Source of the DNA: Thalassia testudinum
Lineage: Eukaryota; Streptophyta; Magnoliopsida; Alismatales; Hydrocharitaceae
DNA length: 64,000 nt
Assembly: GCA_037157565.1 (NCBI GenBank)
Contig: JAZHRO010000013.1
Span: forward strand, 119,240,001 to 119,304,000
Direction: 5' to 3'
In this document: one piece after another, positions 409-58,237 of the stretch
How positions within the stretch are numbered: position 1 is the stretch's first letter
Layout of the letters: every line of letters begins with the position of its first letter
The notes under the pieces: model-generated
What the model was told of the DNA's origin: nothing
The model's database searches: none
What the model saw: the letters and a program-made list of their open reading frames with translations, nothing else
Translations under genes and position numbers: made by a program

Positions 409-1129
409 TGATGAGAGCCTCATCATGAGCCATAACTAGCTCATCTTGACCTAATAAAGAAGATAAAAGCTCCTACATAACCTAGAAGAAGGCTTAACTG
501 AAGGAACAAGTGCTCTGAGAAGAAAACATGAAATAAAGGTTAAAACTGCAATTTTACCATTGCAGTACATAAACGGGATTTCTCAGAAGCAAAACATAGG
601 TCAAATGGTCCAAAGTGGGTTGAATTAATCAGAAATGGGTTTATGTGCAATCTAAGAATTAAATGACACTTGGTAACCCTAAAACAGACCCGCTTAAATT
701 AACAAGGTTCCGGTCAGAATAAAAATCAAGCAAACCCTCTAAAAATCATAGAAAAACATCCTCTGGGGTTTAGAACACTTAATTTGGCCTTTGGAACCTA
801 GTTTGACCTAGATTAGGGTCTTAGCTCTTCAATTAACCTAATTTGGGTTTTTACGCAAAATGTCTAGTCAAACGAGGTCAAACCTAAAATCCAACTTCAC
901 CATTGGATTCTTTAGGGCCAAATTAGGTTTGTACCAAAATTTGGACCTAAGGGGAGGTCATCTTGACCTACTTTGCAAGTTAGTACACCCAAATCACAAA
1001 GAGGTCCCTATCTTTTGAATATCCTTGCAGAGAGCCCCCTAGGTTCCTCACCTTCTTTGCAAACCGGTCCTGCCGCCATTGCTAGGGCAGAACCGAGCTC
1101 CGACGAAGTTTCGAGAGAGATGGCTCTCT

Positions 1130-1181
1130 AATTCCTCAGAGATTCTCTCCCAGAAATGGAAGGGAGATTCTCTGAGGAATT
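1130..1181 (+). other. U3 hairpin upstream of the E1 TATA box
   Basis: Arms 1130-1151 and 1162-1181 are near-complementary (AATTCCTCAGAGA... against ...TCTCTGAGGAATT). E4 has a hairpin of different core sequence at the equivalent place (38942-38991), and E6 has one at 10764-10789. All lie upstream of a TATA-like box. Confidence 0.7.
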
Positions 1182-2771
1182 CCCTTCCTTCTAAAGCCAA
1201 TCAAATTCGCTAGCGTGAACCCAATCTCTCGTGCGAACGCACGAGAGATGTGGGTATCTTTCTTCCTTCCAACTCCGACGAACCGGCTGACCTAATTGCG
1301 CGTCTTTCACGCACTGATAGGAGCGGCCAGCACCTATAAAACACCCCTCGGACCCGGCCACTCATCTTAAGCTTGATTTTGACGGAGATCCCCTCCAAAT
1401 TTCTTCTCTCCCATCTCTGGCCAAACGACCCACAAGCTCCGGCGACCGCCTTCCCTCCTTCTCGTCACTCTGCTGCCATACCAGCAGCAGAGTCCTCTCT
1501 GCCTCTTCCTCCCGCGGCGCACTGTACCCTGCGTGCAAGCTCCTGACCTCATCTTCGTCACCGCTTCCTCCCCCAGGGTCTTTCTTCCCCGACGACGGCA
1601 GTCACGAGCCATTCTCTCCGCTGCCTCCCTTCACTCCAGACAACCCCAGATACGTTCTCCATCCTCTTCTCTCTTTTTTCCCCCTATTATCTCCCTTGAT
1701 CGACCCTCGACAGACGCTAACCACCTCCATCGTCTTCGCCTCCGACCGCACTCCGGCGAGCCGCCCACACCACTCCAGCCCTCCACACGGCTCGCCAACC
1801 ACCTCGAAAGCTCCGCCTCACCTCCAGGAACACACTCCACCCTACCACTGCCACTCCAGCCCTCCACAACCACCCCCCGACCAACCCACCATCTCCGGCC
1901 ACAGGTTGACCTAGGCACGCACGCCTTGGCCGACCTGCGGCCTGCTGCACTGCCCACCGCCTTCGCCATGCCACGACGAAGGTCTCTATCTATTCTGATT
2001 TGGCTGAGAGGCGCATTTTGTGTACGACAGGATTCGAGCCGCTGCCGCCATGGACGACCTCTGATGAAGCTCCCGCGAAGCTCCAGGCACCCGGTCTTCC
2101 AGACTACAGGTGCTGCATACTAACGCAAGTGTCGCGAGGTGAACGAATCCAGCCAAGGAGCGCTAGCAGAGCCAGCAGCTGCGGGGCAATCGCACGACGA
2201 GGTTTCTGCAGGCGCGCGTGAAGGCGAGACCAGATAGTCCCACATCGTGGGATTGCAACCGTCAGGTACCGTATAAGTTGTTTTTACGCTTTACTCTTAT
2301 CGCCTCAGTAAGCACAGGGGTGAGGTCCCTCACTGACCCCACCCGCCTCGTCCGCGGCCTGACCACGCGGACCTGGCGGATCCGACCCGACCTAGACCTA
2401 CGCACTCCTCGCGCATCACACACCTGCAGGTGCGCCTGGTCCCAGGTACAATCCGACCCGATTGAGACTGTGGCTCTGGTAGAGCGGTTAGAGTGAATTG
2501 CTTGAGAGAGAGACGCGCGGGTAGAGGGAGAAGGGTTAGGTTTTGTTCCCTGTGCAGGCAGGCTGATTGCAGGAGAAGGACTTGGCCGCTGCAGAAGAAG
2601 GAGAAGCAAGACAAAGAAGAAGAAGAAGGCAACGAAGAAAGGAGAAGCAAGACAGAAGAAGAAGAAAGAAAGAAGTCTTCGCAGGAGAAGAAGAAGAAGG
2701 ACAAGGAAAGATTGCAAAGAGATCCGAAAGGCAAAGCAGAAGAAGAAAAAGAGAAAGAAAGATCACATTTA

Positions 2772-2799
2772 AGACGTCTGATACATAAATCAGACGTCT
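2772..2799 (+). other. Perfect 11-bp-stem hairpin in E1 LTR
   Basis: AGACGTCTGAT (2772-2782), loop ACATAA, ATCAGACGTCT (2789-2799). The same unit, diverged, is present four times in the E6 LTR (11448-11682). Confidence 0.8.
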
Positions 2800-9487: not shown

Positions 9488-12133
9488 TGTTTTAAAAGCT
9501 ACTTCGTAGTATAGGTCAAAATCGTTTGAAAAAAAATAATATTTATGCTCGAAAGAAATTCGTGGTCGAACACAGGGTGCAAGTAACAATTAACTCTCAA
9601 GATTGCAATTCTATCAATGTATAACAATAATTCCAAGCAAGAATGATATATATGATAAAGCAAATGTCAATGAAGCAAAAAGATTAGGGTAATTGGTGAT
9701 TCAAATCACCAATTACCCCAAAGCACAAATAAGCTCAAGTATCTTAAATAATGCAACAGTAATATCAATGCAACAGTAGTATCAGTCGAAGGTCAGGTCG
9801 ATCAATCGATGATGGAAGCCGTTTTCGTGCATTTTAAAGTCGTCAAAAATTGTAGTATAGACACACTAAAACGTTCATCAAAAAAATAATTTTGTAAAAA
9901 TAACGAGACTTGAGTCCCGGTTGTTCATCTATGGGAGGCTTTTAAGCAAATCTAAAGTTGATCTTTTCCACTCTACTTATTGAAAATCGCACGCTGGTTT
10001 CCAATCGTCGGTTAAAGTTTTGCCACTTTCATTGTGAACCCTGATTACATGTGCATATGTTAGATAAATGATGAAGGTGAAAGTGTGAGTTTTAGAACAC
10101 ATGATTCTAGTTATGTGGTTGTTTACGGAAAATGCATTAATAGTTAAATCCTCAATATTTTCTGGCACCGATATGCTGGTTGCAATAGATAATATTTAAA
10201 AATAAGTAACTTTGATCACACAAAATATATTGCAATCAATAAGCTCATGGTGATTCTCAACACAGATATATATATAAAAGTTTCTTTCATTCATTCAGAA
10301 GGATGTTTGCAACATGGAATTAGAGGAAAGCTTATAGAAGAAAGCTTGAAAACATAAAACTAGCTAATAGAAAACGATTGCATACAGGAATCTATGGGGG
10401 GATTTTGCATGCATCATTGGAGGAGAATAAAGAGCTACACTACTAAGTAGTAATAAAAGCATGTAAATATGAAGAACTAGCTACTAATCTAGTAGAAATA
10501 ATGGCATTCGGAGGTGATCTCCAATGGCCTTTGAGTGGTTGAGAGGAGGAGGGGCAGGCAATGGTGCTTAGGCCAACCCTTGGAGAGAGGTTGGAGAGGT
10601 GATCCAGCATCCTGGCGTGGAGATGGTGGTAGGCATGGTGAGCAACTCATGGAGGTGGAGTGGAAGTGAATGTAGCAAACCTAAATGGAAGTGAATAATG
10701 CCAAGAGATGGATGGGTGCAAATGACCACCCCTTAGGCCTTTTTATAGACCTAAGGGAAGCTCTCTAGAGAATTATGGAATTCTCTAGATAGGCCTATGG
10801 TGGGAGCTCATGGGAGAGTGAGAGAGAGAGGATGAATGGTGGTTTTTAGATCCACCAAATGTGGATCTAAAAATTGAATGGCTCTTGGTCGCTAATTTTA
10901 GCAACCAAGGCAACAACACATGGTAGAGAGTTCTAAAGAACTCTAGGCTAGGTATTTTCATGTGGATGGTGTGTGTGGGTGTGTATGGGTCAAAACCTAG
11001 GTGGCTAGGTTGATTAGGTTAGGTTCTAGTGGGTTTAGGTCAAGGTAGTTCTCAAATTAGGGTTGTAAACCCTAATTCACTAAGGTAAAGTGCAATTAAA
11101 CTTAATACAAGTTTAATTATGTGTGTGAAAGTTTAATTGAGAGTAAAATAACTCAATTAAGTTAGGTCTAGGTGAATTGGACTCTCATTGAGTCCAATTG
11201 GATAGTGTGTGTTGAGATCAGGGCTCAATTGGACTCAATGAGTCCAATTGAATAGGCTGATGGAATTGAGTAAGATCCAAGTCAATTAGGTTTAGTGAGG
11301 ACCTAATTAGGTCCTTACCAAGGTCTAGAGGTGATGTACTAGGGTTAGGGCTCCTTAATTTAGGTTCCTATGGGGTTAGAATTGGGTTTAGGGGCTAGAG
11401 ATCCAAGATCAAGGCTTGAATACCAAAACAAGAAATGGAGGACAGTATTAAACGTCTAATAATAGCATCAGACATCCTATAATGAAAAATTAGAAGTCTA
11501 GACTTATTTTCTGGACGTCTAATCAGAGTCAGAAGAGATTCTAGGTTCTATCTTGGGTATTCTGTAGAAATTGGATGTCTGACCAAGTGTCTGGACGTCC
11601 AATAACACTACAGAAGTAGGTTTAAGGTATGCAGGAGTTGGCTAAGGGTTTTGGATGTCCTATAACTCATCTGGACATCTAGATAGAGGTTGGAATTTGG
11701 GTTTTAACGTTTCCTAGGGTGCGGTGACCTAATCTAATGGTGGCTAAGGTTTAGGGAAGCTTCTAGGCTGTCCTAGGGCTAGGATGGTCCTAAGTTCTTC
11801 ATATTTTACTGCTTTATTCCTACTTAATAGAAAAGCATACCTTAACTCCCTTACATTATTATCTATTACATCTAAGCTAGGTCTTCTGCTCTAGCTCTGC
11901 TGCAACACTAGTTATTCCAGCTTCAGATCCAGCTTCCGATCTACCTTCTGGTCAGCTTATTACCTGTAATTGTCATAATGCACCTAATCAGTACATTATA
12001 TCATTATTTTATGCATAGCTAAAGGAAAGCAGTAAGGATGCAAGTAATGCTTATGCATGCGTGAATTACCCTAACTTATGCTAAGTCCTAGCCTAATTTA
12101 GGTCAATTAAGACCTATGATTGCTGTGCAATCA
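9488..12133 (-). repeat. E6: lone LTR
   Basis: A 2646-bp LTR on the minus strand, from TGATTGC-ACA-GCAATCA (12133) to ...GCTTTTAAAACA (9488). TATA-like TCTATAAAAAGG lies at about 10738-10748 with an 11-bp hairpin beside it (10764-10789) and the promoter repeat CTTGGTCGCTAA...TTAGCAACCAAG (10883-10908). The U5 box CCTGTGTTCGACC lies near 9572. No primer binding site or polypurine tract flanks it, so it is a solo LTR. The flanks do not give a matching duplication (TTTGA left, GTCGA right). Confidence 0.75.
11448..11682 (-). repeat. Four diverged hairpin repeats in the E6 LTR
   Basis: Four units of about 30-36 bp at 11448-11484, 11489-11524, 11568-11603 and 11650-11682. Each is an imperfect inverted repeat with a GAYGTCT/GGACGTC type arm pair. 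They resemble the single hairpin at 2772-2799 of E1. Confidence 0.65.
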
Positions 12134-12799: not shown

Positions 12800-15610
12800 T
12801 GGTGTTAAGCCCGAATAGGTTGTTAATATGGTGATTTTATCGTTGAAATGTGTATAGTGGTTAACCTAAATCGGACCTAACCATCTCTTTACAAAATTTT
12901 TTAACTTGGCCTACTTGATTTTATCTTGTCACTTTTAGGCCTAGGATTGAACTCAAGGAAGTGGGGTTACAAGTCAATTTTCTATGCCTTTCCTACAATG
13001 AGCTTCTTCAGTTCGTTTATTGTGTTTTTGGTGTTTTTCTTATTTAGAATTTTCTTTTTGGTAATCTTTGTCCTTGAGGCACACCCTCAAAATTGGGTTC
13101 TTGGCTTTGAGCCAAAATAGAGTTCCAAAACGAGTCTATCTATTCACAAGACGGGGTATCTGCAAGTCAAAGATTATCTTTTCTCTTTTATATATATAAT
13201 TTTTCTCTTTTTTTCTAAAAGGAAAGAGAAACAGAAATAAAGTAAATATAGTATATATATATATAGGTATATATTATGTATATAAATGGGTGGGGATGGA
13301 GTTGGAGATGGAGTGTAGCATGGTGTCGAGTCGGTCGTCATCTAGAAAGATGCAACCAATAGGACTAGGTGCCGCGTGGAGTATGGTGTAGGATGGATGG
13401 TGGAAGATGTATGTAATCACGCTTTTTGTATGCGTGTATCGAGGAATACCAGCAACTGGTGCAGATATTCCCACGATGCCCCGTATGGTAAATAATGTGA
13501 AAATATATGTATATATGTATATATGTAAATATATCTATATGTATATATGGTTATTTATAGGTATATATATGTATATATATATATGTATATATGTATATAT
13601 ATATAGATGATATATGTATAGATGTATATATATATATATATGTATGTATGTATATAATACTATATAGATGTCTATATATGTATATATATACATATATAAT
13701 AATATATGTATATATAGGTATACGTAGCTAGATATGTATGTATATGTTTATAGTAATATGTGTATATAGATATATGTAGCTAGATATATATATACATATA
13801 TATATATGTATGTATATATAAGTAGGTGTGTATATAAGTATATGTATATATATATATATATGTATCTATATTTAGTTATATAGGTAACAGTATATATATA
13901 GATATATGTATATTTATACATATATATGAATATAAATGTATGTATATATATCAGTATATATATGTGTATATATATATATAAGTATATAGATATATATATA
14001 TATATGTATGTATACTAATACATAAGTATATAGGTACTACTATATGTATAAATATAAGTATATATATATATGTATATATATATCAATATATATAAGTATA
14101 TATATAGGTATACGTATATATATATGTTTATAATAGAGTATAGGTGTGTGTGTGTGTGGAACTGTTAGTGTAGGTGTGTGTGAGCGTCGGTGTAAAGAGA
14201 GAGTGAGAGAGAGAGAGAGAGCGGGAGAGAGAGCAGCTGCACTGCTGAAGGCAAGGGTGCTGTTAGGGCATCTGGGCTTCAGGGTCAACGTCTGATCCAC
14301 ACGCGCATGTGCAGGCGTGCATTCGGAAAGAGGAGCGCGCGGGAGGATTGGGCACGGAGAGGAAAGGTAGCGCACAGCGTTGCGTAGAGTTGCTGGAACG
14401 GGTGCTCGCAGGCACGGGCGAAGGGACCGGGCGAAGCAGACACGCGGGCTAGTGCGGGTGACGTTGGGGTAGACGAGTAGGAGGGCGCGCACAGGGGCGA
14501 GGGCCGGTTGTGGCGCGCCGCGTGACCGGTAAAGTGAGGAACTCTCCGGTCACGCCACTGTAGCCACAGTGTCGCACAGACTCACGTTAATAGTGGCTAT
14601 AGTGGTCGTCTGCGCCGCGCAACCGGGAGGTGCAGGTGGTGTGAGTGTGGCCGGCTCTCGGCTGGCACCTGTGGGCTGGCGTGCGAGGAAGGAGGTCTGC
14701 ACTGGCCAGTTGCAGGCACAGAGAAGGTCGCGACAGAGCAGAGAAGCGGGAGGCGAGGTCTCTACAAGTGTGTGCGGAAGCTTGCGGGTGCTGCTGAGGT
14801 GCTTGGCCGGCTGCTGCAGAGGCACGCAGAGGCTAGTTGCGGATGGAAGCGAACGTGCGATAGAGCGAAGAAGCGGGAGGCGGAGAGACGACACAGGTGC
14901 ACGTGGAAGGGGCTGGGGCTGCTGTTGCTGCTGCCGAGCTTTGAGCTTCAGACCTTGAAGTGTGTGGCCATGGCTGAAGGTGTGGGAACGTAAAAAAAAT
15001 GAGAACAGAGCCACCACGCCCACCGGCTCTTTGAAGAGCTGGGCGGTGGTGGTCTCACTGTGGTGGTGTGCACCACAGTGAGGGCTCCTACCTGCCGGGT
15101 GTCTCCTTGGAGGAGGAGGGTCGGTGTATGGAGGGAGACGGAGGAGAGGGTGGTAGCCTGGAGAGTTGCTGTGTTGGGGTTTTTTTCGTGGAAGGACCAG
15201 GCTTTCCCTTGCGAGAAGGAGCCGTGGCATTTTATAGGAGAAGAAGGCATGGCCGTGCATGGCCATGGCAGGGAATGGCAGCCGCAGGGAAGGGCTGGCA
15301 AGGAGAGGGATGGAGAGTAGGGAATGGCAAGTTGTAGCCGCGGGAAGCATGGCTTGAGGAGAAGTTGCAGCCGCAGGAAGCATTTCAAAATCAAGAGGGA
15401 AAAAAAATAAAATGATGGTGGATTTTGCAAAGATGCACTTGAGGAAAAAAGTAAAATGCAAGGCCACTTATTTCATTCTCCTCCCCTCTCAATTAAATGC
15501 ATGCATGCATGCATTTTTACAATGCAACTATGGAGTCCTAATATGCATTGGTAATGCTAGGAAATAGCACAAGATGACACAATTGCAGGCGTATTTTTGC
15601 GGTGCAATCA
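12800..15610 (-). repeat. Element A 3' LTR
   Basis: A 2811-bp LTR on the minus strand, TGATTGCACC...ACACCA. TATA-like CCTATAAAATG lies at about 15229-15240, so most of the LTR is downstream of the start of transcription. That part holds a GC-rich block (about 14230-14990), a (GT)n/(GA)n run and then a TATA-rich tract of about 0.95 kb. A U5 box related to CCTGCGTTCGACC lies near 12945. The 305-codon open frame at 14550-15467 begins upstream of the TATA box and is broken in the other LTR, so I do not call it a gene. Confidence 0.92.
13185..14135. repeat. TATA/TATG tract inside the A LTR
   Basis: About 950 bases of almost purely alternating pyrimidine-purine sequence (TA and TG steps). The same tract occurs in the partner LTR (about 24770-25720), with many indels, so it was part of the element when it inserted. 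It is able to form Z-DNA or cruciforms. The small open frames in it are composition artefacts. Confidence 0.9.
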
Positions 15611-16952: not shown

Positions 16953-17828
16953 TTAGTTACCCTCCCGCAGGGTAACGGTTTCTCCAATGGGGGCAAGTTC
17001 ATGAGTCAGATAGGGTTTCAAACGCTGCCCGTTGACCATAAATTTACCCCCAGATTTGGGATCTTCGATCTCGACATCCCCGTTGGGGAATGGTCTTGAG
17101 ACTAGGAAAGGACCAGTCCATTTGGACTTCAATTTCCTAGGAAAGAATTTGAGTCGGGCATTGTAGAGCCAAACTTGCTGAGATGGCTCAAATTCTTTTT
17201 GCCGAATACGGCTGTCATGAAAAGCCTTAGTGCATTGTTTAAAGGTTAAAGTAGAATCATAGGCTTCACGACGGAGCTCCTCCAGCTCTTGGAGTTGGAG
17301 TTTCCTTTCTCGACCACACAGGTCTGGGTCGAGGTTACATTGGCGAACCGCACAATAAGCACGGTGCTCCAACTCCACGGGCAAATGACAAGGCTTCCCG
17401 TAAATGATTCTATACAGAGACATACCAAGGGGAGCCTTGAAGGTGGTCCGATATGCCCGAAGTGCGTCAATTAGCTTGTTGGACCAATCCTTACGGTCAG
17501 GCCGAACCATTTTTTGGAGAATTTGCTTGATTTGCCGATTCGACACTTCCACCTGGCCGTTCGTCTGAGGATGATACGGGGATGCAATACGATGGTGGAC
17601 TCCATACTTCCTCAGAAGTGCCCGAAAAGAAGCATGGGTAAAGTGGCTTCCTCCATCTGAGATAATGGCTCCAGGGATCCCAAAGCATGCGAAGATGTGG
17701 TCTTTGACAAATCGGGTGGAAATAACATGGTCAGCACGGCGCATGGGAATAGCCTTGATCCATTTCGAAACATAGTCAACGGCGATGAGGATGAATTCGA
17801 AGCCATTGGAAGGAGGAAAGGGACCCAT
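16953..17828 (-). CDS. Element A integrase, catalytic core and C-terminus
   Basis: A 291-residue open frame holding most of the integrase, the enzyme that joins element DNA to the host chromosome. The catalytic Asp residues are visible in AVDYVSKW (about residue 18) and ISDGGSHF (about residue 60), and the Glu in [11 protein letters not shown] (about residue 94), as expected for a DDE enzyme. The C-terminal part has KWTGPF and NGQRLKPYL, a GPF/Y-like module. The apparent Met is internal: the true N-terminus, with the HHCC finger, is in the frame that ends at 17612. A one-base change near 17835-17840 shifts the frame, so the copy cannot make whole integrase. The post-pol hairpin follows the stop. 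Confidence 0.88.
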
Positions 17829-19417
17829 GAAATCAATTCCCAGATGTCGAAGATTTCTGCAGCTAGGATGGGTTGTAAGGGCATCATGTCAAGACGTGAC
17901 ATTGACCCTAATGACTGGCACCTAGTGAAATGCTTGGAATAATTGTGTGCATCCTGGTGAAGGGAGGGCCAAAAGAAACCGCACTGCAACACCTTGGCTG
18001 CAGTTTTCCTCCCAGAGAAATGGCCTCCGCAGGCCTGATCGTGGCAGAAGGATAGCACACTGGGGAACTCGCTGTCAGGAATACAGTGACGGATGATTTG
18101 ATCAGCACCTATCCGAAAAAGAAGTGGATTATCCCAGAAATAATACTTTGCTTCTGCCATGAGACGCTCATGCTGGTTTTTAGGCCAATCACATGGAAGG
18201 GATCCAGAAGCAAGGTAATTGCCAATGTCGACATACCACGGTCCACTTACCGCATTTATTGCCAATAGGTGCTCATCAGGAAAAATTTCATTGATCGGCA
18301 GAGTAAGTCCAATATGGTCAGGGTCTAGTTTGGAAAGGTGATCAACCACAACATTCTGGGCTCCAACCTTATCGCGAATCTCATTGTCAAATTCCTGGAG
18401 CAAAAGGATCCAACGAATCAGTCTAGGCTTGGCATCCTTCTTGTGCATGAGATGGCGAATGGCCGCGTGATCAGTGAAAACAATAACGTAAGAGCCCAGA
18501 AGGTAAGAGCGGAATTTCTCCAGCCCAAAGACGACCGCCAGTAGTTCCTTTTCAGTGGTAGTATTATTACGCTGGGCCTCGTCCAACGTCTTACTGGCAT
18601 AGTACACCACGAAGGGGTGTCTATCGCATCTTTGTCCCAGGATGGCTCCGACTGCAAGGTCGGAAGCGTCACACATGAGTTCAAAGTCGAGGGACCAATT
18701 AGGCAGCTGGAGAACAGGGGCCTTAGTGACAGCATTGCGCAACTGCGTGAATGCTTGTATACAGTCGGGGCCCATATCGAAGGGTACGTCGGTTGATAGG
18801 AGATGAGTTAAGGGTCGAGAAATTTTGGAGAAGCCTTTGATGAATCTCCTATAGAAACCAGCATGTCCCAAGAAGGAGTGGATTTGTTTGACAGAGCCAG
18901 GCACAAGTAAATCAACAATGACATCGAGCTTAGCTCTGTCAACCTTGATACCACTATTGGAGATGATATGTCCGAGAACAATTCCCTCGTGTACCATAAA
19001 ATGACTTTTTTCCCAGGAAAGCACGAGGTTTACATCAATACATCTCCTAAGGATACGAGTCAGGTTGGAAAGACATTTGTCGAAAGATGGTCCAAAGACG
19101 GAAAAGTCATCCATGAAGACCTTGAGAAAGTCACCCACCATGTCATGGAATATCACCAGCATACATCTCTGGAAAGTTGCTGGCGCGTTGCAAAGTCTGA
19201 ACGACATCCTTCTAAATGCGAAGGTGCTGAAAGGGCAGGTAAAAGTGGTTTTCTCTTGGTCTCGGGGGTCAATTGCCACCTGGTTATATCCTGAGAATCC
19301 ATCCAGGAAACAGAAAAATTTATTTCCCGCTAACCACTCCAGGATTTGGTCAATGAATGGTAGCGGAAAGTGATCTTTCTTGGTTGCAGCATTGAGTTTC
19401 CTATAATATACACACAC
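17612..19417 (-). CDS. Element A reverse transcriptase, RNase H and integrase N-terminus
   Basis: A 601-residue open frame. [21 protein letters not shown] at the start, [12 protein letters not shown], and the catalytic FMDDFSVFG at about residue 110. The RT-RNase H connection has [13 protein letters not shown] and [12 protein letters not shown]. RNase [39 protein letters not shown] and the WILLLQEFD...DHLSKL tail with its Asp. The integrase finger has H-x-C style residues ([18 protein letters not shown]). After EIFDIW the frame departs from the family pattern, the mark of a frameshift, and the last residues are not genuine protein. RT and RNase H themselves look intact; the frame lacks its real start because of a stop near 19450. 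Confidence 0.9.
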
Positions 19418-19980
19418 TCTCCAAGATGTAGGAGTGCGTGTAGGGATGGATTAGCCCCTGTCATTGACACGGATGGTGAGTCCTACCTTTTTGGGCACAA
19501 CGTGAATCAGACTCACCCAGGGCTATCGCTGATCGGGTAGATTATACCCGCATCCAACCACTTAATAATTTCTTTCTTAACGACCTCTCGCATGTTAGGG
19601 TTGAGATGTCGCTACATCTCACAGGAAGGTCGAGCCTCCTCCTCCGTATATATATGGTGAGTGCAGTAGGAGGGGCTAATGCCAGATAAGTCTGATAAGG
19701 ACCATCCAATAGCTGCCTTGTGTTCTATGAGGACCTTAGTTAGTTTGAACTCTTGCTCCCTGGTCAATTTTGAACTGATGATTACAGGGAGCATTTCATT
19801 TGGTCTCAGGAAAACATACTTAAGTGTACTGGCCAGCTCTTTCAGCTCGGGAGTGGATGGTGAAAGATCTGGCATTTCATGGGACGAGAGTGTCCCAGGC
19901 GGGTTGGAGAACAAGTTAGGAGGAAGAAATTGGCCTTTAGATTGGCCAAGAAGAGGGGTTTCTTGGATGGATGGATCCAA
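19418..19980 (-). pseudogene. Element A protease-RT linker
   Basis: An open stretch at 19612-19980 holds LKYVFLRPNEMLPVI, HKAAIGWSLSDLSGI and SYCTHHIY, the segment that joins protease to RT in this lineage. Stops near 19612 and 19453 break it before RT. In an intact element this would be one frame from gag or protease into RT. Confidence 0.8.
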
Positions 19981-27824: not shown

Positions 27825-27829
27825 GTTTT

Positions 27830-31620: not shown

Positions 31621-31739
31621 CTGACCTGTCACCATCATTACCCATGGACCTCTATAAGGTTGAGTACCATCACATGACACCATTTGAAGAGATCGATGTT
31701 GATCAACTCCCGCCCTTTCCCTTCCCATCAACTGTGATC

Positions 31740-33417: not shown

Positions 33418-33428
33418 TCCAGACAGCA

Positions 33429-34640: not shown

Positions 34641-34654
34641 CATCGAGCATCGCC

Positions 34655-34700
34655 CAGCTGGAGGCGTTAAACTCAGCGCTTCCTGAGAGGCAACCCAGAG
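34655..34700 (+). other. Post-pol hairpin motif in N
   Basis: CAGCTGGAGGCGTTAAAC, TCAGCGCTTC and then CTGAG-AGGCAA-CCCAG. The stem has one mismatch here (A against C), where A, E4 and E8 have perfect pairing. It begins about 16 bases after the integrase stop. Confidence 0.75.
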
Positions 34701-35943
34701 GATTCAGACTGATCTGGTAGTTTACATCACTCAAGTACTATCTTTTTGAACCCTTTTGCATCCATGTACTTGCCAATGAGGACATTGTCCAACTTAAGCA
34801 TGGGGGGGTGGTAAATTGGATAATCTTGAGCTCAATTAATTAGTCTGAATGAATAAATTAATTAAAAAAGAAATTGAATTTAGGAAGAAAACTTAGGCAT
34901 TAGAAACTTGTCAATAATGGAAAATAATACAAAAAGAACTTAAACACTTAGACTTTTCAGGCCTTCAGGCTTAATCAGCCCTGGTGTCCATTAAAATATG
35001 GATTTAGCGATGAATCCTCGCAACCTTAAGCTATTCTAATCCACCTATTAAATAAGGTAATAAGTATACGACTTATCAACTCACCCTCTAACTCAGAAAA
35101 ACTGAGTCTAAGCATCTGCACACATTTCTACACAGACTCACTTCTCGGAGATTTTGACAGAAATTGGGTAGCTAATGAACTCTCTAGGGTAGTATGGCTA
35201 GCAAGTTGTCGTGGGCAACAACCCATTGGCAGGTTGTCCAGAACCCAGCCATAGGCCATTTCTTTTCATTGCCTCTAGGTACATTTGAGATCAGGGAAGC
35301 CACCTACGAAAAAAAAAAACAAAGAAAATAAACCACACTTCACTGCACAAGTATGGCTGACAAGTGATCGTGGGTAACAGCCCATTGGTCGGTTGTCCAG
35401 AGCCTAGCTCAATAATTGGACAAAAAAGACCAAAACACCTAAGGAAGAAGTGGGGAAGTAGTACAAGTCGGGGAGATATACACTGGAAAAATCCTTATGT
35501 TGACCCCAATTAAAATAAACGTAGGGAGAAAGCTACCAATCGAACAAATACACCTTCAGGCAAAAATTTATTTCCTTTTCCGGTCACCTAGAAGTGTAGA
35601 AACTCGAAGTCTGTCTCAATTACCGTTAAGTGAGTCTATCACAACATTCACACCAAGATGCTTAGCACTTAGGGTTTTGACCGAGTTTTGGGTGGGTTGG
35701 GTAGCCGTAAAAAGTTACCAACCCACACTAAATTCCGAAAAAATTCTAAAAATATATATATATACATATGTATAGTTATATACATTAAAGCAAGGATTCA
35801 GGTGATTCGTATTTTGGCAGACACCCGGGCGATGCTTAATCTTTGTAGATTAAGATCTTGGTATATTTCCTCTTATTGACAAGTGACGAAGTGTCTAAAC
35901 AATTACTTCTTAAATTCTAAAAGGAAATAAAAATTAGAATAAA
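34701..35943 (+). other. Element N 3' non-coding region with duplicated motif
   Basis: No coding seen. Two copies of a motif of about 55 bases, at 35191-35250 and 35350-35410, each with GTATGGCT, a GTCGTGGG/ATCGTGGG segment, CCCATTGG and GGTTGTCCAGA. E5 carries two copies of the same motif on the minus strand (54653-54716, 54873-54930). Much of this region aligns with E5 54130-55200. Confidence 0.75.
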
Positions 35944-35979
35944 CCTTGCTAGGGCTAGCAAGGAGCAAGCATAGGGGTA
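35944..35979 (+). other. Element N pre-PPT hairpin and polypurine tract
   Basis: CCTTGCTA-GGGC-TAGCAAGG (35944-35963), then AGCAAGCATAGGGGTA up to the LTR. The first two bases of the stem differ from the TTTTGCTA form of other elements and the partner bases differ to match. Confidence 0.85.
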
Positions 35980-37349
35980 TGATAACACTACACAAGGGAG
36001 TGATAATTATGTTGAATATGGCCCATCTTTAGAATAAAAGGCACAACATAAGTAGAAGAGGAGCGTTGCATGCATCATGTACCAAGATTGCTTATAAACT
36101 GTATTAATGGCCATTTGCGTAAGCATTGTTAAAAGCAGGCCTCAGATGAGCAATCAGATTGCCCGGATGGATTCAGAACGACGAACGGAGTCTAACGGAC
36201 TCAAGATCGGCCAAATTCGACATCCGGAGGTCCTACAATGGGCCGAAGAAGTTCTGACTGTTGATCTGGAGATCAACGGCCCAGATTGCGCCACGTCAGC
36301 CCCGCCCCCACCGCACGCACGCCTTCAGCCAGCCGAGAACAAATCTCGGCCGTCGATCTTCGATCGAACGGCCGAGACCCGCGCACCCGCCCACGATCGC
36401 TGCGACAAAGTGCGAGCATGGCGCAATGGTTAGCACGCATGCCTGCACCCACGCGACGCGCATTCGAGCCGCGTGGGGTTGAAATTGAAGGCGAGAGTCG
36501 GGCGCGGAGAAATTGGGCCGCCCGATCAGCAGCGGGCGGCTGGGATCTTGCCACGCGGCGCGACCGTAGCTCATGAGCGCCCACGCATGCGTGCACACGT
36601 GCCCGAGGCGCGATCCCAGCATAGGCGAGGAAGACTCTCAGCCGTTCGATCTTCGATCGGACGGCTCTCGTTCAGCGGCCACGGATCGCACGAGAAGGAA
36701 TGAGGCGGGCGGCTGACCAGCGGCGGGAGGGCTTCACCGGCGCTTTTGGAAGTGGTTTTAGTGACGCTCTGGATGTCGCTAAAGCCCCTTCTTCTTTTAG
36801 GAAGCCCTTAACTCTATTTAAACCCCCTCCAACCACCATTCAAGGCATCCACCCCCCCTTTCAACTACTCCACCCCTCTCTTGGCTAGCTTTAGGCAGTC
36901 TTGTAATCGTCGGAGATGACGAGCCACCGACGGAGCCTCCTCCACCGCCGTGGCTGCCTCGTCGCTCTCCACACACACTCTCTCTCTCTTTTATGCTTTT
37001 TATTACTTTTGTTGAAGCATGTATTTAATGTTGTAAGTTATGAACTACAAGTGCATGTTTAATGATGTTATTTTCCATTCAATTGCCATTTTAGTTTCTG
37101 TTCAAGTTGCATGATCAAAACAAAGAGCTTTCTAACCCTAAAACCTTCTCTCTCTCTCGCTTTTCAAAATCGCATCTTTCGCAAGCAAAACTCCACACTT
37201 TCCGTGACAACAAGTGATAAGCAAAAGTCCAATTTCCACGCCTCCCTGAGACCGACACTCGGACTCACCTCCGTTTAATTATTTTAAAATCGACATTGCA
37301 AGTGTGACTATAACGACACTCCTTAACACACATGCACAACGGCACATCA
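35980..37349 (+). repeat. Element N 3' LTR
   Basis: 1370 bp, TGATAACACT...GGCACATCA. The promoter repeat lies at 36757-36783 and the TATA-like CTATTTAA at 36813-36820. A tRNA-like block at 36411-36480 has GGCGCAATGGTTAGC (A-box-like) and CATTCGAGCC (B-box-like) in a T-arm-like fold. Confidence 0.92.
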
Positions 37350-39746: not shown

Positions 39747-39784
39747 TACCCCCATGCCTAGCTTTTGCTAGTCCCTTAGCAAAA
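39747..39784 (-). other. E4 polypurine tract and pre-PPT hairpin
   Basis: On the minus strand TTTTGCTA-AGGGAC-TAGCAAAA (39784 to 39763), then GCTAGGCATGGGGGTA, then the LTR. Confidence 0.85.
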
Positions 39785-40352: not shown

Positions 40353-41302
40353 TGAACCAGCACAAAGTGCTTACATGCCCCTAGTAGGATATTTAGATAT
40401 CCTAGGAGACAAGCACTGAGGAGATGGTATGTTCTTGCACATCTTCAAGGGCCGCCTCTTTGCACTGAGAACTCATCAAAATCAACTTGTGTTTTCAACC
40501 TGCTCCTAATCTAGATCTTAGGACCATTTTCAGAACAAATTAAATGCCTTTTGGCATTATTTTAACTTTAGAGTTCACCGAACCAAATTGTGTGTGATTT
40601 AGGGTGCTTAAGTTACCAAGTCCCGTAAACTAGAGGCCAGTTAACGAGGTCGAATAATCCTTACACCTTAGACCTAATACATAAGCTTTGCATTTTCCCC
40701 AACCTCTTGAGGATTAATCTAGATCTTGACAAGTACATGAACATTTAAATCCAATATAGATCCAAGAGGCCTAAGGTTGGTATTCACCACTAATTCCTTA
40801 AGTTTTAGCCTTTCAGGTCTTAGTTCATCATTCGATCCAACCTAGAAGGTGGGTAGGTTCCAAATTATTTCTAAGGGACTCAATTTTATTTTTCTTTTGT
40901 GCTTCTTTCTTTTCATATCAATTTTCATTCATCCTTTTCAAAAATGGCTCTTCTTTTTCCTCAACCTCCTTTTTTTTTTTTGGAATATGTAATTTTTTTT
41001 GATGAAACCCTTTCTTGTGAAGTGATTGTCACAACATTGTGCACTTTAATACCCCCCCCCCCCCAATGCCTACGAGTTACAATGTCCTTATTGTAAATTA
41101 GGCAGGTTCGAGTTTAGCTTAGATCATACATTAGAACAGGTTTCAAGTGGGTGGATGGGTCTAGATGACTGTTGCGAACGATTTCAAGTTCTGGTATGAA
41201 TACCAGAGGTGGAGTCAGTTGTTCTAATCGATAAACCCTAAAGTGCAATATGAGTTCAGCACGGGATGTGTCAAGAAGGGTTTCAGGCTTTTCAAGAAGA
41301 TG

Positions 41303-44985: not shown

Positions 44986-45201
44986 TCACCAATTGCCTTC
45001 TTGAGTGCTAGGGTTTTACGAATCTGTGAATCTGTACATCCCTAACACTCACAAAAACACATTAAAACAATAATAAAAAATGCAATGCATGCCTATCCTA
45101 ATTTATGCCTAAATGCAGCCCAAAAACCCGTTTGCGGAGTAAAATCCTAAGAGCTAGGTTAGTTTTAAAGCATAAAAATGATGATAAACTGGCGTTTATC
45201 A

Positions 45202-45239
45202 CACCCCCATGCTTATCTTTTGCTAGTCTCTTAGCAAAA
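45202..45239 (-). other. E8 polypurine tract and pre-PPT hairpin
   Basis: Minus strand TTTTGCTA-AGAGAC-TAGCAAAA (45239 to 45218), then GATAAGCATGGGGGTG next to the LTR. Confidence 0.85.
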
Positions 45240-51249: not shown

Positions 51250-53499
51250 TGATGGCGAAAATACGCGGTTTGTTAAAATACGTCGTTGTAACGCGTAAAT
51301 CCGCTTTCGCTTTTAAAATTTATATCCTAGATAGGGGAGTATCTAGGGTCGTCCAAGGAGGCAATATGGTTGCAAAATTGATTCTCTTGCTTGGAATACA
51401 ATCTCAACTTTCTTTTTGGTATTTTTCAATATATCATTTTTTTGTTTTAAATTAAGACAACATGCGGAATGGTGACGGGAAGGTGATTTACACTTCAATT
51501 TAAAATACTACTTCTAAGTGGCAAGTAGAGCCTCTCCCTAAGCTCACTCTAGGCAAGTGGAAACCTAGAATAATTAGGGAGAGGAAGTGAAGAATGCTGA
51601 AAATAAGCAAATAGAAATGCAAACAAGATATACGAAGAAGGCAACTAGATAGTTGATAAAGTGTTTAACAAAAATGCCTAGTAGAGGAATGCTTCTACTA
51701 CTAGATAATTGAAGTAAAAGGAAACACAAATCCTCTAAATAGATGGTGAAGAAGAGGGCTTCTTGCTCCAAGGTTGGTGGCTCCCAAGCTTGAAAAGAAT
51801 CCTTCAACTCCTTCCTTGCAGAACTCCGCCAAAGTGATGACCTCCAAGGCAAGCCCTAAGGGGGCGTGCCCTAAGTTTCTCTCCAAGGGTGGACGTCCAC
51901 CCTAAGCTTTTCTCCATTGCCTGGCCGTCCTCCTTGAAGTGGGAGAGTCCTCCTCCTTGGCGTGGCTCAAGTTGAAGAGAGTGGGGAGAAGAAGGCACCA
52001 AAAGGGCTGGTGATGTGCCCCTTTAATCTCCTTCTCTACTCCTTCTTCTTGGCCGTAGGTATAGGTGGATGTAGGTAGAAAATACACTAAGGGAGGATGC
52101 CTCAAAATGGTGGTAGGTGGTGGCCTTTTATAGAATAGGAGGGGGGGCTATGGTGACCTTTGAAATGGATGGCTAGGATGGAAGGAGGGAGGTGGTTAAG
52201 GATCCAATGGCCAAGGGTGTTTGGCGCCACCTTAAAGGACACCTAAGGGGTGGTTATGTGTGTTGACACCCCTTGATATTGGCGCCAAAAGGGCTTCTAG
52301 AAGAAGGTCTAAGTTGGCGCCAAGAAGGATTCTAGAAGGGGGGTTAGGTGGATGGCTAGGATGGCTTATGTGGGTAGGTGTAGGGTGGATTAAGGGGCTG
52401 AAAGTGGCGCCAATATAGAGGTGGTTAGGGGTGGTTTTTGGCGCCAACTTGAAGTGTCTTTTGGTGGAGATAATGGGGTGAAGGGATGGCTAGGAGGTGG
52501 TGCCAACTTGAGTAGGCTAGCTAGCTTAGGTAGGCTTGAGTTGGTGGAGCTAGCTAGGGTTGATTTTTGGAGGTAATGAATGGCCAAGGAGCTGGTTGTT
52601 AGCTAAGCTAAGCTAAGCTAAGATAAGCTAAGCTAGCTTAGCTAAAGGTGGAGTAGAGGAGAAGGTGTTGGAGCTAGGGTTTGGAGCAAGGAGCTGAGGA
52701 GAAGAAGTCTGGAGCTGGAGCTGGAGCTGGCTGCTGCTGAAGAGGCTGGCATGGGGCTACTCTAGCTGGCTTAGCTTGCTAGTTCTTTGCTAGCTACTAA
52801 GCCAAGCTAAAGTGAGCTAGCTTCTACCAAAATGAGCTGAGGTGAGCTAGGTCTGGTGCTTCCGGGGAGAATCAAGCTGGTTGAGGCAGCTAAGGTAGCT
52901 TAGCTCAACTGAGTTGAGCTAAGCTGAGTCCCCGGGAGCTGGACTTGAGCTTCCTGAGCTGAGATGAATTCTTCTTCAGCTGGCTGGAGTTGAGTGGAGC
53001 TGGATGTAGCTGGATCTGAGCTGGGGTGAACTCCTGTCAACTCAGCTGAGCTAGCTAGAGCTCCCTGTGAACTAGTGGGAGCTGAGATGAGCTAGACTCA
53101 GCTAAGTTGAGCTGGATCTGAGCTGACTTGAGCTAGGGTGAGCTAAGGTAAACTCTCTTGAGCTGCCATCCAGCTGAGATTAGCTGAATGGAGCTGGGAT
53201 GAGCTAACCCTAGTTCAAGTAAGCTAGGTTCCAGCTATGGTGAGCTGGATCAAGCTGGGTTCCAACTAGTCTGGGCTTCTCCTTCACCAATTGCCTTCTT
53301 GAGTGCTAGGGTTTTACGAATCTGTGAATCTGTACATCCCTAACACTCACAAAAACACATTAAAACAATAATAAAAAATGCAATGCATGCCTATCCTAAT
53401 TTATGCCTAAATGCAGCCCAAAAACCCGTTTGCGGAGTAAAATCCTAAGAGCTAGGTTAGTTTTAAAGCATAAAAATGATGATAAACTGGCGTTTATCA
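51250..53499 (-). repeat. E8 5' LTR
   Basis: 2250 bp, the partner of 42952-45201. The only difference I found is at the eighth base (G here, C there). It drives the gag-protease transcript; the TATA-like box is at about 52124-52132 and the AGCT tract at about 52504-53283. Confidence 0.95.
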
Positions 53500-53504: not shown

Positions 53505-54085
53505 CGCTCACGCACTGGCACTGCACTATGCACATGCGTGCCTCCATGTGCGCACGTGCACCCACAATGCTACATGAGTGCGATGGCATGTGCATACGCA
53601 TGCACGGCTAAGGCTGTGCCATGTGGCACAATCTAGGCCGTCCATCTTCTTTTCATTGTAGGGGCTACTACAGAGGCCGGATTGAGTTGATTTTTGTACC
53701 ATTAGGCTACGATCGTCAACCCAAATCCATCTGCATATTCGGATTTGTCATTTGAAGCTTCAAATTATGTCACCTATTCCCTTGGCCGTTGATCTTCCTC
53801 AGACTGCATATGGTGCTCCGGGACTCCAATCGAGGTGATTTCGAAGGCGTTGGACTCCGATCATTGTCTTGATTAGATCCATACAATCGGATCATCAATC
53901 CAAGGCTCCAAAATTAATACCCTTCTCTCCTGACCACAAAAAGGATGTAATTAACCTAAATTATATACAACTACTCTAAATGCAGAATGATGCATGCTAT
54001 GAAATATTTATAACATGAAATGAAAATCTAAGCCTAGGAACATGCATGAATAGGCATTTTACCCTCAATAAATGTGTTTACATCA
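53505..54085 (-). repeat. E5 3' LTR, proximal part
   Basis: Starts on the minus strand at 54085 (TGATGTAAACACATTTATTG), next to the polypurine tract, and matches the first part of the E2 LTR. E8 separates it from 42086-42951. Confidence 0.85.
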
Positions 54086-54930: not shown

Positions 54931-56033
54931 CTAGATAGTTCATTAGCTACTCAATTTTCGAAGAAACCACCGAAAAGTGAGTCAGTGCAAAAAATGTTTA
55001 TAGATGGTAAGGCTTAAAGTCCCCCCAAATCAGAGGGTGGGTTGATAAGTCACATACTTATCAACCCAATTTATTAGCCAAATTAAAAATGAATTTGAAT
55101 TGGTGATGACTTGAGACTAACTCCACATTCGAGTGGACACCTGGGCTAATTAAGCCCAATGACCTGAAGAGTCTAAGTGTTTAGGTCCTCTCGTATCATT
55201 TCCTAAAGTTAATAACTTCCAAATGCTTATGTTCACTTTTCCTAATTTCTTTCTTTTTATATCTTTTTCAAATTTTCAATTATTATTTTTTTTAATTTTA
55301 TAAGAAACTAAAAGAAATTCTATGGAGTTAACATAATGATTTCAGGAATTGATTATCCACCCCCCATGTCTAAATGATGCAATGTCCTCATTGTAAAAAT
55401 AAAGACATGAAAAGGGCGGAGTAAACAGAATATCACCTGAGTGTCGTAAAAATTTGGTCAACTCCGCTGAGAGAAGAGTGTATACACATGCACTAAGTTT
55501 AATGCCTTCAACTAGGCATAACATACATACAAAGAAGAAAATGAGAATTCACAAGTGCGGGTCAAAATCAAAATAAAATTATTGATCCTCAAACCTGCCA
55601 ATAGAATATGTCCACAGACGTGGACTAGATTATGGTGCAGACCCATGCCCCAGGGTCAAGTGGTTCTCAGGTTCTGGATGAAAATCACCCAGAACCGAAG
55701 GTTGTTAAGCTTACAAGGCCAAGCTTGCGGTTTTGGGGTGTGCAACCCAAGACCAAAATGGCGGACTATAGGTAGATTTGGTTCACTAGTTTCAGATGTC
55801 CAATTAACATTCAACTTAGAAAAATAATTAGTCATTTCGAGCTTAGGTTGCACGTGAAAGATATTGTAAGGGTCCTGGTAGAAAGTAGGTGGTTTCAAGT
55901 CCATAGGTACCCTTAGATCCAAAATCAAGGTTCTGTCAAAATTAGCCTCCCAAATTTTATTTCAACAATTCTATCCTCAAACATCAAGAACTCAGGCTCT
56001 GGGACCTCTAGCATATCGTTCACCTCATATGAT

Positions 56034-56425
56034 TCACCCAAGTCCAGAAATTGTGGCTGAATAAAGATTGACTTGGTTGGGCACAATGATCTCAGAAGTT
56101 AGCTCTTTGGGGTGTGGATGAGGAATGGGGTCACTGATTGAATCATCAAGATTCGGATCCTCCAAGTTAACCCCAACTGAATCAAATTTCTCTATTATCG
56201 GGCTATCAAATGGTTCATCAGATTCCCTATTCCCGTTTGGCTCACAAAAATGATTTTCCTTATGCTCAAGTGAGACTTCACTAAGTAATTCTTCACCCTT
56301 AGTTTCAAAGAATTCATGATCCTTATTTAAATATCTCTCAAAATCGATTGTCATTTCCTGGTTCAAAGATATGTATTTTTCCTCGCTCCCTGGCTTGGGG
56401 ATCTCAGGTGAATCAATTGGTTTAT
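56034..56425 (-). pseudogene. E5 acidic protein, C-terminal part
   Basis: About 130 codons homologous to the E2 protein tail (shared: DSPEI, EEKY, MTIDFE, FFETKGEEL/FFDSEGEE, VSLEHKE, VGVNLED). It is strongly acidic, with no recognised domain. The frame happens to stay open leftward into the E9 LTR up to 56522, but that part is LTR sequence, not protein. The upstream Tyr-rich half seen in E2 would lie beyond E9 and outside the window. Confidence 0.65.
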
Positions 56426-56840
56426 TGATAAACACCAGTTTATCATCATTCTTATGCATTAAAACAAACCTAGCTCTTAGGATTTTGCTCCGCAAATGGG
56501 TTTTTGGGCTGCATTTAGGCATTAACTAGGATAGTCATGCATTGCATTTTTTCTTGTATTTTTAACGTATTTTTGTGAGTGTTAGGGATGAACAAATATA
56601 CAGATCCCTAAAGCCCTAGCACTCAAGAAGACAAATGGTGACGGAGGAGCTCAAACTAGCTAGAACTCAGCTTGATCCAACTCACATAGCTAGAATCCAG
56701 CTCACTTGGATTAGGGTCAGCTCATCCTAGCTCCATTTAGCTCATCTCAACTGAATGGCAACTCAAGAGAGCTCATCTTAGCTCACCCTAACTCAGGTCA
56801 GCTCAGATCCAGCTCAACTTAGCTGAGTCTAGGTAATCTC
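56426..56840 (+). repeat. E9: LTR fragment of the E8 family
   Basis: Begins TGATAAAC-ACCA-GTTTATCA at 56426 inside the E5 frame and aligns with the first 415 or so bases of the E8 LTR, including the beginning of the AGCT-rich tract (from about 56641). It is cut at 56840 by the E10 LTR. It is clearly diverged from E8, so it is an older family member in the opposite orientation. Confidence 0.85.
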
Positions 56841-58237
56841 TGATGAGTGGCTACTCATCATAGCTAAAAGGCCGAAATTAAGCTAGATACTAAGCAAAAC
56901 AATATCAAATTAACACATAAAAAGGGTTAAGTGTGGGAATTAAAGAAAAGACCTAAAACTTGTAATGTGTGTTAAAATCTCCTAATTAGGTCACAAAAAT
57001 GGGATATTCTGAAAACTAAAGAACAAATGATGATCCATGCATCAATTGAACACATAAACAAGTTTGAAAAGCCAAATCAGAAGTAAAATCAATGTCGTAA
57101 ATGTTCAATTAAGCACATGTAAAAATTTGAAAGCAATTGGACATCATTTAGGCTTAGAAATAAATAGATTACAATTAGGTCCTTCATGCATTACATTTCT
57201 ACCCTTCAAAACTCCTTTTTGGACCTATTTGCAAGCCGCAGGGACCCTTTTATAAGACTGCAGGGCCCTTCCAGCTGCTATTCTTCTCGCTTTTGGGCCT
57301 GCATGCAAATGTTCTACCCCTTCTTCTAAGGGTCCGTCTGCAAATTTTCCCTCATTTCAGAGAGAAGCCTGTGTTCTTCACGCGCACTGTAGCGCGCGAA
57401 GAACACAGCCATTCTCGACCGTCCATCACACTTTTGATCTCGATCTGCGACTGGATTCAAATGGAACCTTCGCGCGATTCGGTGCGTGCGTTCACCTCTC
57501 TTCCCAGATCTCATCTGACGGTCAGATCTCTCTCTTGACTCGCCGCGCGCTCTACCCATCTCATCCTCACCGCCGGCCTGATTCTGATTAACCTCACCCT
57601 TGCGGTGATCTCAGTCACTGAGCTGCTATTTAAGCACCTCAGTGGTGTCGCGCGCGGAGGATCGCTCCCTCCTACATCTCTTAGCGATCAATTCTTCCAC
57701 TCCAGTCTCTCCTCCTCATCTGGACCCTGATTTCACAGCCACCGGCTGTGGAATCATCGCCTGCTCTCGACCCTCCTCGTCGCTAAGGACCTCGTAGCAC
57801 CTGAGGACGACCCTGGAGTCTCACTAGCAGACTCTTCCCTCCGCTGGTGTCACCCTCCTCCTTTCTTCCTCCTTAGCCGCCGGCTAAGGACCCATAGGTC
57901 CCATTCTTCCTTTTAGTTTAGTTTTTAATTCTGCACAAGTAGTGTTAGATTTAGTTTGCAGTAGTTTAGAATAGATTTAGTTTTAATTGTTAGTGTTTAA
58001 TGTTAGCTGTAGTTAGATTAGTCTTAGGAGTAGAATTAGTATTAGATCCCCTCCCTCACCTCCTCTGATCAGTCCAGATCAGAGGGGAAGAATCATCTGT
58101 TCATTAATCAATTTATCTCCCTCTTCATGTTTTGTTTTTCCACCATCCAATTCTGATTTATGTTCCTTTTAACGACGAATCTTTCATCTGTCACCCACAC
58201 ATCTGGACCCAATTCCAGATCTGATGGTGTACTGCCT
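56841..58237 (+). repeat. E10: probable 5' LTR
   Basis: Starts TGATGAGT-GGCT-ACTCATCA exactly where E9 breaks. A TATA-like CTATTTAAGC lies at 57626-57635. GC-rich and CT-rich transcribed-leader-like sequence follows, with TTAGCGATC (57680) and GTCGCTAAGG (57779). A possible end is ...CTGCCTCA near 58237, followed ten bases on by TGGCGTCACAAGCACC, which only weakly recalls a primer site. The start is well supported; the end is a guess. Confidence 0.55.

What the first reader, a model, noticed from the sequence alone, without database searches (positions are those of the whole stretch)
409..56860. LTRs of unrelated families begin with a hairpin that varies in sequence but keeps its pairing
Six LTRs start with a perfect short inverted repeat whose arms include the TG terminus: E1 TGATGA/TCATCA (409), E4 TGATGG/CCATCA (39746), E6 TGATTGC/GCAATCA (12133), E8 TGATAAAC/GTTTATCA (45201, 53499), E9 the same with another loop (56426), E10 TGATGAGT/ACTCATCA (56841). 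Loops are 3-5 bases. E2 has a weaker version and A only four pairs. Stem bases change together between families. The hairpin sits where integrase must bind, and at the cDNA or RNA edge next to the polypurine tract. I know no described role.
Basis: partly seen in the sequence, partly recalled or inferred. Interest (0 to 1): 0.78.

Follow-up and report, generated by a model that had tools for sequence, protein, structure and literature searches.

The report
RNA hairpin at retrotransposon LTR starts
Most of the Athila-like jumping genes sampled in this plant genome begin their terminal repeat with a small self-pairing hairpin that keeps its pairing while its letters change, and because it was found beside the primer of second-strand DNA synthesis and not at the other repeat end, it looks like a folding signal for copying rather than a site for insertion.

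Summary
The hairpins are real. All seven LTR starts named carry a perfect terminal stem of 6-8 bp including TG, beyond base shuffles (p 0.0003-0.0105; weaker by a dinucleotide control for E1 and E4). The families are groups of one Athila-like Ty3/gypsy lineage sharing a junction module, with 79,173 pattern matches in the 4.26 Gb genome. Of the first 20 matches listed, 17 have the stem, against 5 of 382 other TG sites. A swap test shows each group's 5' arm pairing with its own 3' arm (nine groups, p 0.001 or less). The stem is absent from 20 of 20 U5 ends and 17 of 20 internal polypurine-tract sites, takes G.U (12 cells) more than A.C (3), and seems to extend into the PPT segment (Fisher p=0.0002; other tests weaker). 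This favours an RNA structure of the PPT/U3 junction, used in plus-strand priming, over an integrase palindrome. Against: groups A (0 of 12 rows) and B (0 of 11) lack it, as do 8 of 23 D rows, and only one genome could be read. PPT-junction inverted repeats are known in copia elements: a new variant of a known kind.

The parts
409..425 (+). E1 U3-start hairpin TGATGAG/CTCATCA
397..406 (+). E1 polypurine tract GGCATGGGGG, followed by TA and the TG start
371..392 (+). E1 upstream hairpin TTTTGCTA-AGGGAC-TAGCAAAA
39730..39746 (-). E4 U3-start hairpin TGATGG/CCATCA
39749..39758 (-). E4 polypurine tract
39763..39784 (-). E4 upstream hairpin
12117..12133 (-). E6 U3-start hairpin TGATTGC/GCAATCA (no PPT in front of this copy; L163 and L164, alike in sequence, have one)
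45182..45201 (-). E8 3' LTR U3-start hairpin TGATAAAC/GTTTATCA
45168..45214 (-). E8 predicted long PPT-U3 stem (AAGCATGGGGGTG-TGATAAAC with GTTTATCA-T-CATTTTTATGCTT), PPT Gs in G.U pairs; prediction only
45218..45239 (-). E8 upstream hairpin
53480..53499 (-). E8 5' LTR U3-start hairpin (flank TGCGT = target-site duplication)
56426..56445 (+). E9 U3-start hairpin (same family as E8)
56841..56860 (+). E10 U3-start hairpin TGATGAGT/ACTCATCA
35944..35963 (+). Element A upstream hairpin CCTTGCTA-GGGC-TAGCAAGG (two outer pairs changed on both sides against E1)
35980..36003 (+). Element A U3 start, no terminal hairpin (counterexample)
15587..15610 (-). Element B 3' LTR start, only TTGC/GCAA, terminus unpaired
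54062..54085 (-). D-type 3' LTR start TGATGTAAACACATTTATT, pairing at background level
34773..34807 (+). Internal (second) polypurine tract with its own upstream hairpin CAATG-AGGA-CATTG
55360..55394 (-). Internal polypurine tract with upstream hairpin CAATG-AGGA-CATTG

Best explanation
The hairpin is a cis-acting RNA structure of the PPT/U3 junction of an Athila-like Ty3/gypsy lineage. In the genomic RNA the plus-strand primer GGCATGGGGG lies between an upstream hairpin (TTTTGCTA/TAGCAAAA, 14 nt from its 3' end to the last G in E1, E4, E8 and A) and a stem-loop that begins at the TG, two bases after the PPT, and in several families probably extends downward by pairing the PPT segment with U3. 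Proposed working (inferred): during minus-strand synthesis the upstream hairpin stalls reverse transcriptase so that RNase H, about 13 bp behind in Ty3 (PMC5371799 passage), lies at the PPT/U3 junction. The TG stem-loop lets the U3 RNA fold back on itself and leave the hybrid just past the primer. Together they mark the primer's 3' end and hence the exact cDNA end that integrase later needs. Shown: position, pairing above chance, family-wise covariation, absence of the terminal stem from the U5 ends read. Inferred: every step of the enzyme mechanism.
For: Terminal stem score of 6 or more in 17 of 20 first-listed and 14 of 20 variant-chosen junction loci, against 5 of 382 other TG sites in the same 40 LTRs. 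Swap test: self -6.2 against cross -2.5 to -3.3 kcal/mol, permutation p 0.001 or less in every run for nine groups, medians 0.008-0.011 for the five terminal-stem groups alone. Pairs 5-8 each show three Watson-Crick types between groups. U3 end only: 0 of 20 U5 ends. Only 3 of 20 internal PPTs, three near-identical sequences. G.U 12 cells against A.C 3 in 21 family stems, counted on copies and not on independent events. Pairing with the PPT segment: Fisher p=0.0002 over nine representatives, five of nine at p<0.07. 99 of 100 listed junction matches have the same gap within an allowed 6-10; in the starts held, 105 of 108 (mostly gathered with that pattern).
Against: Group A (0 of 12 rows score 6 or more, maximum 3) and group B (0 of 11, maximum 5) lack the terminal stem, and 8 of 23 D rows outside the TGB set miss it, although 3' LTR copies of these groups follow the same PPT. 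So it is not indispensable. By dinucleotide-preserving shuffles the 26-base hairpin alone is not below 0.05 for E1 (0.053; L070 of the same group 0.010), E4 (0.060), D1 (0.063), D2 (0.187) and L071 (0.217). The outer stem is unsettled: RNAalifold on 31 distinct D sequences chose another pairing at a weak -2.5 kcal/mol, the local duplex test gave p<0.05 in 4 of 38 sequences, the outer swap test median p about 0.045, and shuffling the left arm instead of the tail gave p<0.05 in one of nine. Folding predicts the PPT often paired, not exposed. Some U5 ends fold a few bases in from the terminus (L132, -5.5). Only one genome was available.
Confidence: 0.5

Rival explanations
1. A DNA palindrome for integrase: TGAT...ATCA is a two-sided binding site, or eases unpairing of the cDNA end, at the U3 terminus.
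For: It starts exactly at the terminus TG; TGAT follows the junction in about 77,000 of 79,173 matches (by subtraction); arms are perfect in many families. Integrase specificity is said to lie in the terminal 8-15 bp (PMC3601003 passage).
Against: Terminal stem absent at 20 of 20 U5 ends, which integrase also binds; G.U cells outnumber A.C; offset stems in F and L037 leave the TG unpaired; element A is inserted with a 5-bp duplication without it.
Confidence: 0.2
2. An RNA element with another task (packaging, dimerisation, 3' processing, or a U3 contact with the primer tRNA as described for Ty3), placed beside the PPT for reasons of its own.
For: Pairing and G.U tolerance fit RNA in general; Ty3 has a bipartite PBS with a part in U3 (PMC5371799 figure legend passage).
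Against: The position two bases after the PPT and the second hairpin at near-constant distance point to the junction itself.
Confidence: 0.15
3. Inheritance without function: an ancestral LTR start happened to be self-complementary and drift kept part of it.
For: The families share the junction module and TGAT, so they have a common ancestor; some groups and subfamilies lack the stem.
Against: Drift would break stems, not recompose them: E1, E8, E10, E6 and D have different bases at pairs 5-8 and still pair.
Confidence: 0.1

Closest known systems
[quoted passage not shown] 2010, PMC2829016; passages and sections 8 and 16 read)
   Same: Pairing set by position at the terminal PPT/3' LTR junction; right arm inside U3; the extra upstream PPTs lack it, as 17 of 20 do here.
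   Different: There one repeat (on average 28 bp in Sireviruses, 19 bp in classic elements) holds PPT and att site in its loop. Here a separate short hairpin starts at TG itself, a second hairpin stands upstream, and the PPT is predicted in the stem in several families. Copia there, Ty3/gypsy here.
Short inverted repeats TG...CA at LTR ends, integrase signals (Benachenhou et al. 2013, PMC3601003; passages read)
   Same: Share the TG terminus and the first bases of U3.
   Different: Those match one LTR end with the other; this hairpin pairs within the U3 end and had no terminal counterpart at the U5 ends read. That paper built no models for plant Metaviridae, and calls for a search for PPT-containing hairpins in other elements.
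Second, internal PPT of Athila4 and Calypso (mentioned in PMC2829016, passage)
   Same: This lineage also has an internal CATGGGGGG with an upstream hairpin.
   Different: The U3-start type hairpin follows only 3 of 20 internal PPTs.

Membership tests
Athila-like Ty3/gypsy retrotransposon | RT, RNase H, then integrase (gypsy order) | tested here: met
   RVT_1, RT_RNaseH and Integrase_H2C2 at 17612-19450(-), rve at 16953-17888(-)
Athila-like Ty3/gypsy retrotransposon | TG...CA LTRs and 5-bp target-site duplication | tested here: met
   E8 TGCGT, A AGAGG, B-type CCCCA
Athila-like Ty3/gypsy retrotransposon | PBS complementary to tRNA-Asp | tested here: inconclusive
   TGGCGCCGTTGCCGGGGA or close variants follow LTR ends; that it matches tRNA-Asp, and that this marks Athila, is recalled; the tRNA search did not complete
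Athila-like Ty3/gypsy retrotransposon | Athila ORF-1 domain (PF03078; found in 16% of Athila elements per PMC6317226, passage) | tested here: not met
   no hit in the 15 window frames scanned; absence is common, so the lineage name stays a label
Athila-like Ty3/gypsy retrotransposon | second internal PPT | tested here: met
   58,230 genome matches to GAGGACATTG-N8..16-CATGGGGGG
PPT/3' LTR junction inverted repeat of Pseudoviridae | inverted repeat positioned at the terminal PPT, left arm bordering the PPT upstream, right arm inside the LTR | tested here: inconclusive
   U3-start stem in 17 of 20 junctions; pairing of the PPT segment with U3 Fisher p=0.0002 but weak
PPT/3' LTR junction inverted repeat of Pseudoviridae | PPT and att site lie in the loop | tested here: not met
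   TG starts the stem and the PPT is predicted partly or wholly paired, mean probability 0.32-0.99 in 26 starts
Integrase-binding short inverted repeat | same signal at both LTR ends | tested here: not met
   0 of 20 U5 ends carry the terminal stem; 0 of 23 at p<0.05

The most novel reading that the evidence does not exclude
A two-hairpin primer cradle: one hairpin 14 nt upstream acts as a ruler that stops reverse transcriptase, and a second, family-specific stem-loop at the TG sets the edge of the RNA:DNA hybrid, so that the plus-strand primer and the integrase-ready end are defined by RNA shape rather than by the PPT sequence alone.
Probability: 0.25. Interest if true: 0.7.

Novelty: new variant of a known kind. 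Interest (0 to 1): 0.5.

Why it matters
How RNase H picks the one correct cut at the PPT/U3 junction is usually explained by the PPT sequence and hybrid geometry (general knowledge). A covarying structure on the U3 side in an abundant plant gypsy lineage would make an RNA-shape contribution testable, would answer the published call for PPT-junction hairpins outside copia and HIV, and gives a practical mark for placing LTR starts in annotation.

Tried and rejected
Other species: viral-contig scans found no relative (one match in an unrelated-looking contig, read; none); genome contigs none. Integrase palindrome as main reading: lowered by the U5 control. Requirement for every PPT: rejected, 3 of 20 internal sites. 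Requirement for every LTR of the lineage: rejected by groups A and B. Local duplex test of the outer stem: p<0.05 in 4 of 38 sequences; the test that keeps the hairpin and shuffles the tail did better and RNAalifold on group D did not confirm it, so the long stem is held as likely, not shown. The six-group outer swap test (p 0.0135) used groups chosen after seeing folds and is not counted. Rfam: no family at the LTR starts at gathering threshold. Rows set aside: the TGB set (40 loci; 8 score 6 or more) and TGAV set (20 loci; 0 score 6 or more) were picked for a changed 3rd or 4th base, mostly mutated copies, and are not used for frequencies. The second 20 of the 40 plain-pattern loci were picked by me from the same listing for PPT variety; only the first 20 are in listing order, all on contig C1. 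In the table of 21 stems the stem length was set per family and three rows are TGB copies. One start (E10b) was not located by the script and was left out.
Full report
What is there. The window is G000:C12:119240001-119304000 of an unnamed 4.26 Gb genome; the named protein relatives of its reverse transcriptase among the 120 listed are from plants. It is a nest of Ty3/gypsy elements: LTR pair E8 at 42952-45201/51250-53499 (99.96%), element A at 26441-37349, apparently inserted in the 5' LTR of element B, and single LTR starts. Gypsy domain order is met. E8 and A have exact 5-bp target-site duplications, so TG is the true LTR start.

The hairpins. All seven starts named have a perfect stem from the first T of the LTR. 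With TGAT held and the following bases shuffled 4000 times, p is 0.0013 (E1), 0.0105 (E4), 0.0003 (E8), 0.0005 (E10) and 0.0060 (E6); element A (0.90) and B (0.94) have none. The folding energy of 26 bases against dinucleotide-preserving shuffles is a harder test: E8, E10 (three copies), E6, L088, L105, F and L037 stay at p 0.017 or less; E1 gives 0.053 (L070 0.010, L089 below 1/300), E4 0.060, D1 0.063, D2 0.187, L071 0.217, and A and B copies 0.05-1.0.

The families. E8 and E9 are one family, E1 and E4 are related. Starts of each group occur elsewhere in the genome after the same module: hairpin TTTTGCTA-n-TAGCAAAA, a short spacer, CATGGGGGT, one base, TG. The pattern TAGCAA-N6..10-CATGGGGGT-N-TG has 79,173 matches, reversed control 0, and 99 of the 100 listed have a gap of seven. 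TGB starts number 1,096 and TGAV starts 1,067, so by subtraction about 97% begin TGAT. I clustered 99 starts (40 from the plain pattern, 40 from TGB, 19 from window and random stretches) by LTR bases 25-200 into 17 clusters: D (33), E1 (20), A (12), B (11), E8 (6), E10 (4), E6 (2) and smaller ones, E4, F (L029), L037 and L088 among them.

Frequency. Terminal stem score of 6 or more: 17 of the first 20 listed loci, the three misses all in group A; 14 of 20 further loci that I chose for PPT variety. Background: 5 of 382 other TG sites in the same 40 LTRs. By cluster: E1 17 of 20, D 21 of 33 (15 of 23 outside the TGB set), E8 4 of 6, E10 4 of 4, E6 2 of 2, L088 and E4 yes, A 0 of 12, B 0 of 11. 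F and L037 have strong stems that start some five or six bases in and do not count here. In the sets picked for a changed third or fourth base it is 8 of 40 and 0 of 20, as expected when the pick itself tends to break the stem.

Covariation. In 21 starts from five groups (stem length set per family), pair 1 is always T-A; pairs 5, 6, 7 and 8 each occur as three Watson-Crick types (for pair 5: G-C, A-T, T-A). G.U pairs fill 12 cells, A.C three, other mismatches two; these are copies, not independent events. In the swap test the 5' arm of one group was joined to the 3' part of another: self -6.2, cross -2.5 to -3.3 kcal/mol, permutation p 0.001 or less for nine groups and medians 0.008-0.011 for the five terminal-stem groups alone. 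Shared TGAT alone would not give this, since it is shared by the swapped pairs too.

Where it is not. U5 ends, read inward from CA: 0 of 20 score 6 or more; lowest p of 23 ends 0.091. Some U5 ends do fold a little further in (L132, -5.5 kcal/mol). After the internal PPT (58,230 pattern matches): 3 of 20 score 6 or more, three near-identical sequences, although offsets 0-4 were allowed; L128 reaches p 0.035 with a lower score. With the same freedom the LTR junctions give 31 of 40.

A longer stem. Folding -44..+50 often continues the hairpin downward, pairing the PPT segment with U3: in E8 AAGCATGGGGGTG with CATTTTTATGCTT, the five Gs on five Us. Shuffling only the U3 tail while keeping the hairpin gave p = 0.045 (E1), 0.017 (E8), 0.29 (E10), 0.030 (E6), 0.062 (D), 0.12 (F), 0.007 (L037), 0.34 (B), 0.57 (A); Fisher p=0.0002. 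Shuffling the left arm instead gave p<0.05 only for L037. RNAalifold on 31 distinct D sequences preferred another register at weak energy, the duplex test reached p<0.05 in 4 of 38, and the outer swap test gave a median p of about 0.045. I hold this longer stem as likely in some families, not shown.

The upstream hairpin. Eight of eight pairs in 77 of 108 starts, seven in 25, fewer in six (the 3' arm is partly fixed by the search pattern and the loop was chosen for best fit). Group A copies have CCTTGCTA/TAGCAAGG, two pairs changed on both sides, probably one event. Its 3' end lies 14 nt before the last G of the PPT in E1, E4, E8 and A. Ty3 RT has about 13 bp between polymerase and RNase H sites (PMC5371799, passage). 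That the two distances belong together is my inference.

Reading. U3-only location, covariation, G.U tolerance and the likely link with the PPT favour an RNA structure of the PPT/U3 junction working in plus-strand priming (0.5) over an integrase palindrome (0.2), another RNA role (0.15) or inheritance (0.1). The mechanism is inferred throughout. The main evidence against is that groups A and B do without the terminal stem.

Known work. Bousios et al. 2010 (PMC2829016; [quoted passage not shown] Benachenhou et al. 2013 (PMC3601003, passages) cite it and a similar case in HIV, call for a search in other elements, and had no models for plant Metaviridae. My searches listed no paper whose title or shown abstract start describes such a hairpin in Athila; passages of two plant gypsy surveys (PMC11963269; PMC6317226) did not mention one. 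Most subscription journals are outside that library. So: a new variant of a known kind.

Noticed in passing
window 58080-60867 and 61213-64000: An inverted duplication of 2.8 kb, 99.96% identical, with a spacer of about 345 bases, reaching the window end. Recent duplication, hairpin-like structure or assembly artefact; not examined.
   Followed up: no
window 29609-29715 (-): Rfam snoR71 (plant C/D snoRNA) match, 46.1 bits against gathering 40, inside the span of element A; possible captured gene or false hit.
   Followed up: no
window 34773-34807 (+), 55360-55394 (-), 41059-41094 (-), about 46458 (-): Internal polypurine tract preceded by CAATG-AGGA-CATTG or a variant, 58,230 genome matches; the listed matches, checked by eye, span 30 bases. 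Outer pairs vary together in some copies (ACAATG/CATTGT, GCAATG/CATTGC), but the stretch may be coding.
   Followed up: partly
window 26440 and 37350: Element A appears nested in the 5' LTR of element B; target-site duplication AGAGG.
   Followed up: partly
L034, L033, L041 (position +1 after the PPT): The Athila-like PPT is followed directly by LTR starts of another kind (TGTAACGACCCGG, TGTTAAGACCC); the first matches an LTR pair seen in L012-L013. Insertion at the junction or chimeric elements.
   Followed up: no
window 13592-14200 and about 25031-25560: Low-complexity repeats inside both LTRs of element B.
   Followed up: no
L116, L117, L127: Three near-identical loci have a hairpin TATAAGT-gcaaa-ACTTGTA directly after the internal PPT.
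   Followed up: partly
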